From: Halorubrum hochsteinianum
GTDB lineage: Archaea > Halobacteriota > Halobacteria > Halobacteriales > Haloferacaceae
Direction of reading: 5' to 3'
Assembly: GCF_023702125.1 (NCBI RefSeq)
Contig: NZ_CP098416.1
Coordinates: forward strand, 1-64,000
Length of the DNA: 64,000 bases
Of this stretch, positions 32,270-53,605 are shown one piece after another (within the stretch, counting starts at the first letter, position 1; each line of letters opens with the position of its first letter). A program made the position numbers and the translations under genes. The notes under the pieces were generated by a model. That model did not search any database. It had not been told where the DNA came from and worked only from the letters and a program-made list of their open reading frames with translations.

Positions 32270-33163
32270 ATGGGCAAAAATGTGATCCTCGTTGGAGCCG
32301 GTGCGAGTTTTGGGGCAGGAGAGGTTTACCCTGATAATCCACCTTTAGGTAGAGATCTATTCACACAACTTGAATCTAAATTTCCAAGGTCATGGGGATC
32401 CCTGCCCGATCACATACGGAAAAATTTTCTGAAGGGCTTTGAAGAAGGGATGGTAGCGTTGTCTGAATCCGATTCGAATCTTCACGCACCTCTGTACCAA
32501 GCCATGGCGGCATACTTTGCAGAATTTTCGATTGGAGAAAATAATCACTATGCGGCTCTAATCGAGAGTCTACACAATTCTATTACCAACGGCGAAACGG
32601 TGTTTGTCTCACTCAACTATGATTGTCTTCTCGAAGAAGCCATTGAAGCCGCAGGAATTGATGTCGACCCTGTCCCCGAGAATCTCGGAAATCCTGGTAC
32701 CGTCATCAAACCGCATGGTTCATGTAATTTCCTTCCAGCATCAATCCAGGCATCAGGAATTTCATTTACCGAAGGTGTATCATTCGATGCCGGTGTGAGG
32801 TGTGTCTCAAAAGAGGAGGTTATCGAATACTACCATAGCGACAAGGCCCTCTATCCGGCCATGTCTCTCTACCGCCCGGATAAAAGCACTCAGATCTCCC
32901 CCCCAGTGATTCATCGATTCCAGGAATTGTATCGGAAGGCAGTATCTGAAGCCAATACTATTGGTATAATTGGTGCGGGTATTCATGCTCAAGATGACCA
33001 CATTTGGGATCCGTTGGCATCGTCGGATGTACCACTCTATTACATTGGTGGAAGGCCTGACTTCGATGACTGGCAAGCTGAGCACCGAGACGCCGGTGTA
33101 AATCAATATATTTCACAAAAATTTGGCGACGGCGTGGATGAGCTAATTACGGCATTTGACTGA
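32270..33163 (+). CDS. SIR2-like NAD-binding protein, candidate defence gene
   Basis: 297 residues. The glycine-rich NAD-binding loop VGAGASFGAG is at 8-17, the catalytic region SLNYDCLLEEA near 115 has the Asn-Tyr-Asp seen in SIR2-like defence proteins, and a conserved His is in KPHGSCN near 148. The C-terminal Rossmann-like part ends with GAGIHAQDDHIW. Proteins of this type usually destroy NAD+ on infection (Thoeris ThsA, SIR2-APAZ and others), but here no partner gene is fused. DNA is AT-rich compared with surrounding genes, a sign of transfer. A MITE is inserted 12 nt after its stop. SIR2-like family is clear; defence is inferred. Confidence 0.8.
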   Translation: MGKNVILVGAGASFGAGEVYPDNPPLGRDLFTQLESKFPRSWGSLPDHIRKNFLKGFEEGMVALSESDSNLHAPLYQAMAAYFAEFSIGENNHYAALIESLHNSITNGETVFVSLNYDCLLEEAIEAAGIDVDPVPENLGNPGTVIKPHGSCNFLPASIQASGISFTEGVSFDAGVRCVSKEEVIEYYHSDKALYPAMSLYRPDKSTQISPPVIHRFQELYRKAVSEANTIGIIGAGIHAQDDHIWDPLASSDVPLYYIGGRPDFDDWQAEHRDAGVNQYISQKFGDGVDELITAFD

Positions 33164-33315: not shown

Positions 33316-33466
33316 CACTCTCTGTATTCAGCACGCTATTCTTTACAGATTTCGAGTGGGTTGCGGCCCAGCGTCGCGGTTTCGTTTTTACTTAGCGCTT
33401 CAAAACAAGTGTAACCGCTGCTCTACGACACCCGGTTCAGATTGCGTAGTGTAGTGATGTTTTTGA

Positions 33467-33489
33467 GCGCCTGCAAAGGGTGCAGGCGC
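33467..33489 (+). promoter_or_regulatory. GC leader hairpin with AAAGGGT loop (before the tnpB unit)
   Basis: GCGCCTGC / GCAGGCGC perfect 8-bp stem with loop AAAGGGT, after GTTTTTGA; 89 nt before the small gene at 33579. Confidence 0.5.
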
Positions 33490-33578
33490 GTTCAGTCGTG
33501 CCTGCACAGCACAGGTGATTCGAGATGCAACGCCACCAGCAGCGACAGGTGTATCGACAGCCGGAGGTGCGATGATCG

Positions 33579-33755
33579 ATGGCGGTCGAACTGAATGAAA
33601 TCGAGGAGGCCGAAGTCGAACTGGAACAGTGGTTAGTCGAACAGGCCGAGAACGGTGTTCCGGAAATGGTCCTAATCGGGCTCCTTCGGGACTACGCGGA
33701 CGACATCGAACACCTCGGTTACGTGCCGCGAATGTGGGGTGAGTCAGAGCGATGA
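33579..33755 (+). CDS. Small acidic protein coupled to tnpB
   Basis: 58 residues, MAVELNEIEEAEVELEQW ... GESER. It is one long acidic helix then a short turn. Its TGA overlaps the tnpB ATG (ATGA, 33752-33755), so the two are co-translated. Its leader holds one of the GC hairpins. It may be a TnpB accessory or a host-derived fragment; the sequence does not tell. Confidence 0.55.
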   Translation: MAVELNEIEEAEVELEQWLVEQAENGVPEMVLIGLLRDYADDIEHLGYVPRMWGESER

Positions 33756-34939
33756 GACGAACCAACTCCTTCGAGATCGTGCCCCAGTCGAACCAAGCCG
33801 GCACCATCCTTCGACGGCTCCTCGATGCGTCAGCTAGGCTCTGGAACGAGTTGACCTACGAGCGGCGGCAGCGATTCTTTACCGGAGAGAGCGTCTGGGA
33901 CTGTGACGGATATAAAGACGAGTACGTCGATCTGATCGGGTCCGCGACGACCGCACAAGTCGCCCGCCAGAACGACCAAGCGTGGCGCTCGTTCTTCGAA
34001 CTCCGCGAGACGTCGGACCACGATCCCAACCCACCCGGTTACTGGGGGAATCGCGAGGACGGTCGCGAACTGCGGACCTTCATTCGGAAGGATATGTACT
34101 CTCTCCGGTGGGGCGAGCGTTCTCGTCTAGAGGTTCCGATTGGACGGGACCTGAAAGACGAGTACGGTTTCGGGCGGTACGAGCGCCTTCGGGTTCCGGT
34201 TCGTGGCGATCCACAGTGGACCGGCGAGCAGGGGCAACTCCGGTTGACGTACGATGAGGTCAAAGAAACGTACCAGGCCTACCAGTCAGTAACTGTCCCA
34301 GATGAGGAACGGACGACGCCGACAGGAGAGTCGGTCGCAGCGCTCGATATCGGCGCGAACGTCCTCGTCGCGTGTACGACGACGACCGGCGACCAGTACT
34401 GGTACAGCGGCCAAGAGCCGTTCCGGCAGTTCCGTGAGACGACCCAGCGCATCGCCGACGCCAAAGCGAAGCTGCCGGATGGACAGCAGACCAGTACGCG
34501 GATCCAACAGCTCTATGGGAAGCGATCTCGCCGGCGCGACCACGCCGTGAACGCGCTCGTTCGTGACTTGGTCGAGCGGCTCCACGACGACGGTGTCGAA
34601 ACCATCTACCACGGCGATCTCACCGGCGTCCTCGGCGAGTACTGGTCAGTCGAAGCCAATCTCAAAGCGCGCACGTTCTGGGCGCATCGACAGTGTCTCG
34701 ACCAGCTCGCGAACGTCTGCGAGGAGTACGGAATTGAAGTGGCCTCACTCTCCGAAGCGTGGACCTCCCAGACGTGTCCGGAGTGTGGCGAACGCGAGCA
34801 GACCCGCCGGCATCGCGAGACGCTGCGGTGTCCGTGTGGCTTCGAGGGGCACGCCGACCTCGTCGCGTCGCAGACACTGCTCGAACAGGCAACGAACACC
34901 GCGGTCAGGCCGACGGCACGGCCCGTGCGGTTCCAGTAG
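33752..34939 (+). CDS. tnpB: TnpB-family RNA-guided nuclease with rearranged catalytic site
   Basis: 395 residues of the IS200/IS605 OrfB (TnpB) family. RuvC-I Asp is D199 (ALDIGAN). The expected RuvC-II Glu position reads HGDLTGVL, so Gly288 replaces Glu. A conserved-looking Glu335 lies 47 residues on, in LSEAWTSQTC, just before the zinc ribbon (CPECG ... CPCGF). RuvC-III Asp is D369 (GHADLVAS). An alternative Glu about 45 residues downstream is described for Fanzor and related TnpB proteins, so the enzyme may be active. No TnpA gene is nearby. If it works as other TnpBs, its guide RNA would come from the 3' end of this gene and beyond. Confidence 0.82.
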   Translation: MRRTNSFEIVPQSNQAGTILRRLLDASARLWNELTYERRQRFFTGESVWDCDGYKDEYVDLIGSATTAQVARQNDQAWRSFFELRETSDHDPNPPGYWGNREDGRELRTFIRKDMYSLRWGERSRLEVPIGRDLKDEYGFGRYERLRVPVRGDPQWTGEQGQLRLTYDEVKETYQAYQSVTVPDEERTTPTGESVAALDIGANVLVACTTTTGDQYWYSGQEPFRQFRETTQRIADAKAKLPDGQQTSTRIQQLYGKRSRRRDHAVNALVRDLVERLHDDGVETIYHGDLTGVLGEYWSVEANLKARTFWAHRQCLDQLANVCEEYGIEVASLSEAWTSQTCPECGEREQTRRHRETLRCPCGFEGHADLVASQTLLEQATNTAVRPTARPVRFQ

Positions 34940-35141
34940 GACGATCACCAGTGGTCCCCCGTCGAGGGGGTCGCGGTGGGGCCCAACGAATAGCGCACAG
35001 ACCCGCAAGGTGCCGCCGTGGTGTCGCCGTGACACCAGCGAGCGGACGCTCCCGTGTGTGGAGTGGATGTCGATCCGCTGGTCGCTCGCTTTTCGTACGT
35101 GGTCCCTTAGAACTAATAGACGTACGGATGTCCCTTCAGTA
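34940..35141. other. Region after tnpB, possible guide RNA and right end
   Basis: No gene. It contains a GC hairpin (CCCCC-GTCGA-GGGGG at 34956-34970) and several GC-rich inverted stretches, as expected for a reRNA scaffold at a TnpB element's right end. The boundary with the cargo gene at 35142 is not defined. Confidence 0.35.
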
Positions 35142-36407
35142 ATGGACGCGTCAACCCCTTATTTTCAAGAAACGGTGAATCTAGATATTTATGACAAAGA
35201 TGTCCACGCAGAGGTCTCACTCTCAGAAGCAGGAAATATAGATGTGGAGGTTATCAATAGTCCTCAATTCGGTGTGTCCTCAGAATTCTCAGAAAACATC
35301 GGTGCCATTGGAGGAACAACCTTAGATGGCGACGGAGTTGAATTTTCTAATGTCATAGTTTCTCTTGGTTTACAATCAAGTAGGAATAAAGCCAGTCATC
35401 GATACATTAGTTCTCTGTCACCACCCTCCGAAATAGAGATTGACGGTTCTGGTGGGTATGTGTCCTACGAGGGTGAAGAAGTTAGTGTGCAGTTCGATGT
35501 TCTGGGTTTCAAGCCATTCATTCCACACAATGCAGTAGACGAGATCGAACTTATAAATCGGGATTCGTGGCAGGTGACAGCATCATCAGTAAATGAGATA
35601 GATGAGCGAATTGATTTCATCAAGTCTCACAAAACCCTTCTCCGAACAGCAGAGGTTGTAGTTACATTAGATATTCCAGGATGTATCTCACATCAAGTAG
35701 ATCAAGCTCGCGAAAAGCTGAGTGATGTACTATCCTTAGCAGGATTTGTACAGGGGATGGGGCCAAATTTCGTCCGAGGGGAAGTAATCAGCATCAATGG
35801 AGAGCCCCCTGATACTGTTGATAATGGGATTCGATTTACAAAAATGTGGTCTACACAAGGAGATATTGGTGGTGCATTCAAGTCAGAAAGGTTAGTCTGG
35901 GGAAATGAATTCCCACAATACTTAGACGTAGCTTATGACAATTATGATTCTTATGTCCAAGACGAACTTCAACTTCGACATGTCTTAGGATACTACTGGG
36001 ATGCATTAAATTCGACACGGCCCGTTGAAGGCCGCTACTTGAGTGTATGTAGTGCGATTGAGTTGCTTGCAAAACGGTATTCAGATCTATTTAAGCAACA
36101 ATCTAGAACGCAGGACAGAATCGAATATCTGGTTGATGAGTTAGAGGTCGAAACAGATGACCTTACCGACTTCGCAGGAACGTCTGATCGAGCCGTATCA
36201 TCAACGTATTTTTACAGTTATTCTCGCCAATATGTAGTTCACGGCGATAATAATCTGACTTGGAGTGAACTTCGAGATGATTTTGAGGCTGCCTTAACAC
36301 TCCTTCAACGAATCATCAGAAACCAGCTAGTTGGACCAGTAGAGGAAGAATCTGGTTTTAATGAACTGGTTGATATTAGTCCGAAAGGTGTTGTCGAATT
36401 CGAATAG
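35142..36407 (+). CDS. ApeA-like HEPN-domain protein, candidate defence RNase
   Basis: 421 residues from ATG 35142; open frame continues upstream into the tnpB region but with no sense. The N-terminal ~300 residues are beta-rich (SNVIVSLGLQSSRNKAS, VSYEGEEVSVQFDVLGF). The C-terminal part is helical (YLSVCSAIELLAKRYSDLF ... LRDDFEAALTLLQRI) with the HEPN catalytic pair R-x4-H at R362 and H367 (SRQYVVHGDN). This layout resembles ApeA, a HEPN RNase with anti-phage activity. DNA is strongly AT-rich relative to neighbours. A MITE is inserted 8 nt after the stop. HEPN is likely; defence is inferred. Confidence 0.65.
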   Translation: MDASTPYFQETVNLDIYDKDVHAEVSLSEAGNIDVEVINSPQFGVSSEFSENIGAIGGTTLDGDGVEFSNVIVSLGLQSSRNKASHRYISSLSPPSEIEIDGSGGYVSYEGEEVSVQFDVLGFKPFIPHNAVDEIELINRDSWQVTASSVNEIDERIDFIKSHKTLLRTAEVVVTLDIPGCISHQVDQAREKLSDVLSLAGFVQGMGPNFVRGEVISINGEPPDTVDNGIRFTKMWSTQGDIGGAFKSERLVWGNEFPQYLDVAYDNYDSYVQDELQLRHVLGYYWDALNSTRPVEGRYLSVCSAIELLAKRYSDLFKQQSRTQDRIEYLVDELEVETDDLTDFAGTSDRAVSSTYFYSYSRQYVVHGDNNLTWSELRDDFEAALTLLQRIIRNQLVGPVEEESGFNELVDISPKGVVEFE

Positions 36408-52306: not shown

Positions 52307-53605
52307 ATGACGATGGAGATCATCCGTACCGTCAAAATCAAACTTGACGTGCCCAACCCACGACGGGACGACCTCCATCAGACTGCCGATCAGTTCCGTT
52401 ACTGCGCCAACCAAACCAGCAAGTGGGCGTGGCGTACCTCAGCAACCGAATACTGCGTCACAAGCAAGGCTAAAGCCGAAGGGGCCCTCTACGATCGCCT
52501 GCGCGAAGAAACCGACCTTACGGCTAACCTCGTCCAGAAAGGGGTTCGCCGTGCTATCGAGGCGGTCAAAAGCGGAGTCGAAGCGTGGAAGAGAGGCGAC
52601 CGAACCAGCCAACCGCACTTCGATGCATGGAGTGTCGTCTACGACAAGCGGAGTGCCACCTTCCATCGTGACCACGTCTCCCTCTCAACCGTGAATGGAC
52701 GGGTCGAATGTGACTACGTGCTGCCCGATGAAACAGCCGGGACACCGATTGGGGACTACTTGCTGAACGAGGACTTCGAGTTCCGAATATCCACGCTTCA
52801 GTACGACCGCTTCGAGGACGAGTTCTACCTCCACGCCCGTATGAAACGCGCCACCGAAGATGGCGAAGACACGCGTTCGAATTCGGACACGCACAACGAG
52901 AACCCAACAGTTCTCGGCGTGGATTTGAACGTTGATGGCTCCTTCGCTGTCACCAGTACGGGCGAGTTCATCGAGTCAGCGGATTACCTCAATCACCGTC
53001 GGCGCGAGTTCGAGAAAACCCGTGGCAACCTCCAAGAGACAGGCACACGGTCAGCTCATCTAACTATCCAGCAGATGAACGACCGCGAACACCGCTGGAT
53101 ACAAGACGTACTCCACAACGTGGCAAATGAGATTCTCTGCGAAGCCCGTCGAGTAGACGCGACTCACGTCGCGTTCGAGAATTTAACAGGGATCCGCGAC
53201 CGGATGGCCCACGCGAAGCGGTTCCACGCATGGGCGTTCCGCCAGCTCTACCAGTATGTAGAGTACAAAGGCGAAGCCGAGGGTGTGACTGTCGAGCAGG
53301 TGAGTCCTGCCTACACAAGCCAGCGGTGTTCGAAGTGTGGCTGTACATTAGAGGAAAATAGACCGTCGAAACACGAGTTTGAGTGCCAAAAGTGCGGGTA
53401 CGAACTCAACGCCGACTATAATGCGAGCAAGAACATAGCTCGCAAACTCGCCAAGCGTCTCCACCCGGGGCAGAAGTTTTCGGGTGGAGGAGCCACCTAT
53501 CAACTGGCTCTAGCGTCGGGGTTTTTGAACCTAAACGGTGAGTTTCACGACACCGGCCCTGCAGCGGCAGAAGGGAAATCCACCGACAAACCCCACTCTC
53601 CATGA
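52307..53605 (+). CDS. tnpB: TnpB-family RNA-guided nuclease, canonical active site
   Basis: 432 residues (ATG 52313 is an alternative). RuvC-I Asp in [10 protein letters not shown], RuvC-II Glu E291 in [11 protein letters not shown], zinc ribbon CSKCG ... CQKCG and RuvC-III Asp in [10 protein letters not shown]: the full D-E-D set. No TnpA is nearby, so it is an IS1341-type, TnpB-only element. The C-terminal tail is Gly/Pro-rich and probably overlaps the guide RNA scaffold. It contrasts with the first tnpB (33752), which lacks the RuvC-II Glu. Confidence 0.9.

What the first reader, a model, noticed from the sequence alone, without database searches (positions are those of the whole stretch)
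33752..34939. TnpB with the RuvC-II glutamate moved about 47 residues
Direct reading: D199, Gly288 where Glu is expected (HGDLTGVL), Glu335 in LSEAWTSQTC before the zinc ribbon, D369. A comparable relocation of the RuvC-II Glu, about 45 residues downstream, is described for Fanzor and some TnpBs. The canonical TnpB at 52307 keeps Glu (E291), giving an internal control. So either an active rearranged nuclease or a nuclease-dead (TldR-like) regulator is encoded.
Basis: partly seen in the sequence, partly recalled or inferred. Interest (0 to 1): 0.72.

Follow-up and report, generated by a model that had tools for sequence, protein, structure and literature searches.

The report
TnpB nuclease with relocated catalytic glutamate
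This gene encodes a TnpB, an RNA-guided DNA-cutting enzyme carried by a mobile element, whose catalytic glutamate sits at a different place in the chain; the shift is real and shared by a large family of archaeal TnpBs, but this kind of rearranged enzyme was described in 2023, and at least one was shown to cut DNA.

Summary
The window TnpB (33752-34939) has D199, Gly288 in place of the canonical RuvC-II Glu, Glu335 six residues before the zinc ribbon, and D369; the TnpB at 52307 keeps E291. Gly288 and Glu335 are invariant in 114 of 114 rows of close relatives. In 234 sampled, mostly archaeal, TnpB rows the two sites are almost perfectly exclusive: (G,E) 171; (E, not E) 61; (G,P) 1; (E,E) 0; one further row is a spurious ORF. 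Across 54 rearranged proteins down to 18% identity, the only invariant columns are D199, G201, G288, E335, D369 and four zinc cysteines. dN/dS is about 0.13. The AlphaFold model has the full TnpB/Fanzor2 fold, with E335 just after beta-5, where Fanzor keeps its Glu. This is the published 'Ealt' (RII-r) TnpB type with a D-phi-G RuvC-I motif; one RII-r TnpB has been shown to cut DNA. An active rearranged nuclease is therefore much more likely than a TldR-like dead regulator for the lineage. This copy may be decaying: a TAG replaces a Trp codon inside the omega-RNA overlap, and no Y1 transposase was found in the genome. New details: a conserved 58-aa ORF coupled to tnpB, a CxC zinc ribbon, Gly at the vacated site.

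The parts
33459..35094 (+). approximate extent of the TnpB-only element (left end to start of guide); limits good to a few bases
   Evidence: blastn against 18 relatives stops at 33458-33461 and 35089-35100 in most loci with different flanks
33467..33489 (+). left-end subterminal hairpin GCGCCTGC-AAAGGGT-GCAGGCGC
   Evidence: perfect inverted repeat, found only here in the window, conserved in nearly all relatives
33579..33755 (+). conserved 58-aa ORF, no known family, overlaps the tnpB start (ATGA)
   Evidence: no Pfam/NCBIfam/PHROGs/PADLOC match; directly upstream of a TnpB in 19 of 24 hits, and of a tnpB fragment in a 20th; median dN/dS 0.107
33752..34939 (+). TnpB, 395 aa, RuvC triad D199/E335/D369 with Gly288 at the canonical Glu position; zinc ribbon C342 C345 C360 C362 (CxxC...CxC)
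34613..34615 (+). codon of Gly288 (vacated RuvC-II site)
   Evidence: position 288 of the translation
34754..34756 (+). codon of Glu335 (relocated RuvC-II Glu, Ealt)
   Evidence: position 335 of the translation
34937..34939 (+). TAG stop where close relatives read TGG (Trp); removes a conserved 18-aa tail; also breaks one consensus omega-RNA pair
34904..35094 (+). predicted omega-RNA (reRNA) scaffold, overlapping the tnpB 3' end; guide would start near 35090-35095
   Evidence: nearly invariant nucleotides including third codon positions at 34904-34957 and conserved noncoding blocks up to about 35089; five pairs with changes on both sides
52307..53605 (+). control: canonical (Ecan) TnpB, D206/E291/D370

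Best explanation
It is an IS200/IS605-type (TnpB-only) element whose TnpB belongs to the rearranged-active-site (Ealt, RuvC-II-rearranged) TnpBs. The protein binds the omega-RNA transcribed from the 3' end of its own gene and the right end of the element. It recognises a TAM plus guide-matched DNA, and cuts with a RuvC site made of D199, E335 and D369, E335 replacing the Glu normally at position 288. The biological result, by analogy with TnpB, is retention of the element by cutting the empty site. Shown here: the sequence state, its invariance and mutual exclusivity with canonical Glu, purifying selection, the complete TnpB fold (predicted), and a conserved RNA-like right end. Inferred: cleavage, the identity of E335 as metal ligand, RNA binding, the guide, and the biological role. 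The lineage is very probably active; this copy may be slightly damaged and immobile.
For: D199, G288, E335, D369 invariant in 54 Ealt proteins down to 18% identity, where only nine columns are invariant. Mutual exclusivity across 234 rows. dN/dS 0.133 over relatives. AlphaFold model pLDDT 87.9 with E335 immediately after beta-5, the place given for the Fanzor Glu in PMC11423790. Full-length fold match to ISDra2 TnpB 8h1j (Z 21.4, rmsd 3.9, 339 aligned) and mimivirus Fanzor2 9b0l (Z 21.4, rmsd 3.6, 352 aligned). Relatives sit in IS605 elements with an overlapping TnpA. Ealt is defined in PMC10711439 as Glu six residues before the zinc finger, which E335 fits exactly. PMC10278001 reports that one RII-r5 TnpB is active. 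Conserved RNA-like 3' end.
Against: No experiment on this protein or, so far as I found, on a haloarchaeal Ealt TnpB. Carboxylate distances in the model could not be measured. This copy carries a TAG that removes a conserved tail and changes a conserved RNA base. Window-versus-others dN/dS is somewhat higher (0.188). No Y1 transposase was found in the genome. MFE of the RNA is not significantly below shuffles (z -1.25).
Confidence: 0.86

Rival explanations
1. Nuclease-dead, TldR-like RNA-guided DNA-binding regulator: the loss of the canonical Glu abolished cleavage and E335 is not catalytic.
For: The canonical RuvC-II Glu is absent. The genome has no Y1 transposase, so the element is not kept by mobility.
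Against: E335 appears wherever G288 does (171 of 172 rows) and never together with a canonical Glu. D199, D369 and the zinc cysteines are invariant; a dead regulator would be free to lose them. One RII-r TnpB is experimentally active and Fanzors use this Glu.
Confidence: 0.07
2. The particular window copy is a decaying pseudogene of an active family: truncated by TAG, transposase-less, with a possibly weakened omega-RNA. (This concerns the copy, not the lineage, and can be true together with the best explanation.)
For: TAG at 34937 replaces a Trp codon present in all aligned close relatives. The same base breaks one consensus RNA pair, seen only in the window. dN/dS of window against others 0.188 versus 0.133. 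No TnpA in the genome.
Against: The triad, zinc ribbon and frame are intact. The lost tail lies beyond RuvC-III, and the window copy still shows strong constraint. Much of the tail's conservation may reflect the overlapping RNA.
Confidence: 0.3
3. E335 is a misleading neighbour and another residue of the beta-4 motif (D289 of GDL) supplies the third carboxylate.
For: D289 is adjacent to G288 and highly conserved in close relatives (113/114).
Against: D289 is not invariant in the wider Ealt set (GGL, GAL, GNL, GKL, GEL, GYP occur), whereas E335 is. Canonical TnpBs also often have Asp there (EDL) next to their Glu.
Confidence: 0.03

Closest known systems
Ealt TnpBs with D-phi-G RuvC-I (PMC10711439, NAR 2023); RuvC-II-rearranged clades RII-r3/RII-r5 (PMC10278001, CRISPR J 2023)
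   Same: Glu exactly six residues before the first zinc-ribbon Cys, hydrophobic residue after the RuvC-I Asp, TnpB length and fold, 3' omega-RNA (predicted here)
   Different: Second zinc knuckle is CxC rather than CxxC, so the published regular expression would miss it; a coupled 58-aa ORF stands in place of TnpA. Which RII-r clade it falls in could not be tested (supplementary data and the PNAS census not held).
Fanzor2 / pro-Fanzor (DPG + Ealt)
   Same: same relocated Glu; model matches mimivirus Fanzor2 9b0l (Z 21.4)
   Different: RuvC-I is DIG, not DPG; archaeal IS200/IS605-type element, not IS607 or eukaryotic
Canonical TnpB (ISDra2 type, Ecan)
   Same: fold, zinc ribbon, RuvC-I and RuvC-III Asp, element layout
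   Different: RuvC-II Glu moved from beta-4 to the end of beta-5, Gly at the old site
TldR (nuclease-dead TnpB-like regulators)
   Same: lacks the canonical RuvC-II Glu
   Different: complete alternative triad under purifying selection
Haloarchaeal sotRNA / omega-RNA of IS1341-type tnpB (PMC12558985; Rfam RF02656/RF02657 as cited there)
   Same: RNA overlapping the 3' end of tnpB in haloarchaea
   Different: no Rfam match here even at permissive thresholds

Membership tests
TnpB (RNA-guided endonuclease TnpB family) | profile match over its curated cut-off | tested here: met
   NF040570 131.2 bits against cut-off 100; PF01385 82.9, PF07282 55.9
TnpB (RNA-guided endonuclease TnpB family) | WED-REC-RuvC-zinc-ribbon fold over the full length | tested here: met
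   VIA-align of the predicted model: 8h1j Z 21.4, 8exa Z 20.8, 9b0l Z 21.4, AsCas12f Z 27
TnpB (RNA-guided endonuclease TnpB family) | omega-RNA at the 3' end of the gene/right end of the element | tested here: inconclusive
   Strong nucleotide conservation including third positions and five doubly changed pairs, but MFE z only -1.25, no Rfam match, no RNA data
TnpB (RNA-guided endonuclease TnpB family) | RNA-guided dsDNA cleavage with a TAM | not testable with these tools
   needs biochemistry; no empty site was found in the right-flank search, so the TAM is unresolved
Ealt / RuvC-II-rearranged TnpB | Glu six residues upstream of the zinc-ribbon CxxC, no Glu at the canonical site | tested here: met
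   E335-x6-C342; G288; definition in PMC10711439
Ealt / RuvC-II-rearranged TnpB | relocated Glu coordinates catalytic metal | not testable with these tools
   model coordinates not exported; topology only
Fanzor / pro-Fanzor | DPG motif at RuvC-I | tested here: not met
   DIG at D199
TldR (nuclease-dead) | incomplete catalytic triad without substitute | tested here: not met
   D199, E335, D369 all present and invariant in the family
IS200/IS605 element with TnpA | Y1 transposase in the element or genome | tested here: not met
   PF01797: no match in the genome; related elements at about 59% TnpB identity do carry an overlapping TnpA

The most novel reading that the evidence does not exclude
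The 58-aa ORF that is translationally coupled (ATGA) to this TnpB and stands where TnpA stands in sister elements is a dedicated partner of Ealt TnpBs, for example a regulator or inhibitor of the nuclease or an RNA/transposition cofactor, making this a two-protein, transposase-less OMEGA module not described before.
Probability: 0.2. Interest if true: 0.55.

Novelty: new member of a known kind. Interest (0 to 1): 0.3.

Why it matters
It shows that the relocated RuvC-II Glu is not an oddity of Fanzors but common across archaea, present in haloarchaeal, other phylum-level archaeal and crenarchaeal-virus elements, and that the vacated site is a Gly in every true Ealt row examined. This gives a simple sequence test (G at the old site, E six before the zinc ribbon) separating rearranged nucleases from dead ones. 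The one G/P case found (L181) is a candidate truly dead TnpB. A host with Ealt and Ecan TnpBs side by side is a natural comparison of the two active-site designs.

Tried and rejected
Viral-contig scan with the protein gave no relatives. Rfam gathering and permissive searches gave no usable match. No empty insertion site: only one relative shares the right flank at length and it appears to carry the element too, so TAM and guide are unresolved. The putative guide has no other copy in the genome at 0-2 mismatches; there were 13 hits at up to 3 mismatches against 7 for the reversed control. Two independent origins of Ealt in archaea: the tree needs 2 changes but the AU test does not reject one clade (p 0.21), so I do not claim it. 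D289 as substitute carboxylate rejected because it is not conserved in distant Ealt members. SisTnpB1 (D187, E271, D335; PMC10640517) considered as experimental precedent: by spacing it is canonical, so it is not one. The PNAS 2023 census of TnpB could not be read. PDB search with the Planktothrix DPG/Ealt protein gave no hit.

Full report
CHECK OF THE OBSERVATION. The ORF at 33752-34939 (+) is 395 aa. It matches the TnpB family over its curated cut-off (NF040570, 131.2 bits, cut-off 100; PF01385 and PF07282). A phmmer alignment to AsCas12f puts G288 on the canonical Glu and E335 on the residue two before the TSQxC of the zinc ribbon. The second TnpB (52307-53605) keeps D206, E291 and D370, all invariant in its own alignment. 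The genome has four loci with the TNB zinc-ribbon domain: three of the rearranged type and this one canonical.

IS E335 TIED TO G288? Yes. In 114 rows of close relatives (haloarchaea, down to about 54% identity; a few rows are repeat fetches of the same locus) both are 114/114. A wider sample over the archaeal phylum (plus the window) was aligned, 234 rows: (288,335) = (G,E) 171, (E,P/A/Q/S) 61, (G,P) 1, one spurious ORF, and never (E,E). These rows are not independent, and many are close relatives. In an alignment of 54 rearranged proteins, with identities to the window protein down to 18%, the only invariant columns are D199, G201, G288, E335, C342, C345, C360, C362, D369. That is the pattern of a catalytic triad plus a zinc ribbon. 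The same G/E state is seen in IS elements of crenarchaeal viruses (ISDka2 in HAV2, SMV1, ATV2), and a Planktothrix plasmid TnpB has DPG plus G/E, the pro-Fanzor signature. Over the TnpB coding part before the RNA overlap, median dN/dS among 13 close sequences is 0.133.

STRUCTURE. AlphaFold2 on the 54-row alignment gives mean pLDDT 87.9, pTM 0.77. D199 ends beta-1 (194-200), G288 is near the end of beta-4 (282-289), E335 follows beta-5 (329-334) directly, and D369 begins the last helix (368-381); strand names here follow the RNase H fold. PMC11423790 describes the Fanzor Glu on the loop between the fifth strand and the TNB domain, which is the same place. VIA-align matches the full length to AsCas12f (Z 27.2), ISDra2 TnpB (8h1j Z 21.4, rmsd 3.9, 339 residues) and mimivirus Fanzor2 (9b0l Z 21.4, rmsd 3.6, 352 residues). 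The model of the canonical control has its Glu at the end of the corresponding strand (287-291). Distances could not be measured because coordinates are not exported; this step is inferred from topology.

EVOLUTION. On a 76-row tree built without the two columns, Ealt needs two changes, with one set of 34 rows (haloarchaeal and other archaeal) and a second small set of three. An AU test does not reject a single Ealt clade (p 0.21). The root and the number of origins are therefore open.

THE ELEMENT. Similarity to relatives with different flanks ends at about 33459 and 35094. The left end has a perfect hairpin 33467-33489. From 34904 the nucleotide sequence becomes nearly invariant including third codon positions, up to about 34957, and again in blocks of noncoding sequence to about 35089. 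RNAalifold finds 57 pairs, five with changes on both sides kept, but the MFE of the window sequence is unremarkable against shuffles (z -1.25). I read this as the omega-RNA scaffold with the guide beyond 35090-35095; RNA data would be needed to prove it. Related elements at about 59% TnpB identity carry an overlapping IS200-type TnpA. The window element does not, and no Y1 transposase was found in this genome, so the element looks immobile here unless a transposase is supplied from outside.

CONDITION OF THIS COPY. In close relatives the protein goes on for 18 residues (WDDHQWSPVEGAAVGPNE in L005). In the window the Trp codon reads TAG (34937-34939), seen in no aligned relative. The base lies inside the RNA overlap and breaks one consensus pair, only in this sequence. 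The triad is intact. The copy may be functional or at the start of decay.

COMPARISON WITH WHAT IS KNOWN. PMC10711439 defines Ealt as a Glu six residues before the zinc finger and reports Ealt clades with DPG (Fanzor, pro-Fanzor) and with D-phi-G. The window protein fits the second. PMC10278001 names RuvC-II-rearranged clades and states that one RII-r5 ortholog cleaves DNA. Small differences: the second zinc knuckle is CxC, so the regular expression used in PMC10711439 (CxxC) would not have caught it; and the vacated site is Gly in every true Ealt row here, a regularity I did not find stated in that paper's text.

A CONSERVED SMALL ORF. 33579-33755 encodes 58 aa (MAVELNEIEEAEVELEQWLVEQAENGVPEMVLIGLLRDYADDIEHLGYVPRMWGESER) and overlaps the tnpB start by ATGA. 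It has no family match, evolves with median dN/dS 0.107, and in 19 of 24 hits over 148 genomes lies directly before a tnpB of this type; in one more (L272) a tnpB fragment follows. It stands where TnpA stands in sister elements. Its function is unknown to me; a partner or regulator of TnpB is the natural guess (inference).

VERDICT. Observation confirmed; interpretation supported, with the active-type nuclease strongly favoured over a dead regulator for the lineage (0.86 against 0.07), and real uncertainty about this particular copy. As a kind it is known. Interest is moderate to low, mainly for the clean exclusivity rule, the archaeal breadth, and the small coupled ORF.

Noticed in passing
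33579-33755 (+): Conserved 58-aa ORF of no known family, translationally coupled (ATGA) to tnpB; directly upstream of Ealt tnpB in 19 of 24 genome hits and standing where TnpA stands in sister elements; median dN/dS 0.107.
   Followed up: partly
L181 (G285:C3:147500-151000), ORF 340-1959: TnpB of the canonical clade with Gly at the RuvC-II Glu and Pro at the Ealt site (G,P): the only sampled protein with neither Glu, a candidate nuclease-dead TnpB.
   Followed up: partly
34937-34939 (+): TAG in place of a Trp codon conserved in close relatives, inside the predicted omega-RNA overlap.
   Followed up: yes
L295 (Planktothrix agardhii plasmid p1), 974-2248: DPG + Gly + Ealt TnpB with degraded zinc cysteines next to an IS200/IS605-type TnpA; PMC10711439 links DPG/Ealt TnpBs (pro-Fanzors) to IS607 TnpA.
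   Followed up: no
32270-33163 (+): SIR2-like protein (weak PF13289 and PADLOC SIR2 matches) just upstream of the element; possible defence gene.
   Followed up: no
33385-33458 and 35095-35150: Left and right flanks of the element each recur in several relatives but in different combinations, as if insertion sites or neighbours were shuffled.
   Followed up: no
whole genome G000: Four TnpB loci (three Ealt, one canonical) but no Y1 TnpA detected.
   Followed up: yes
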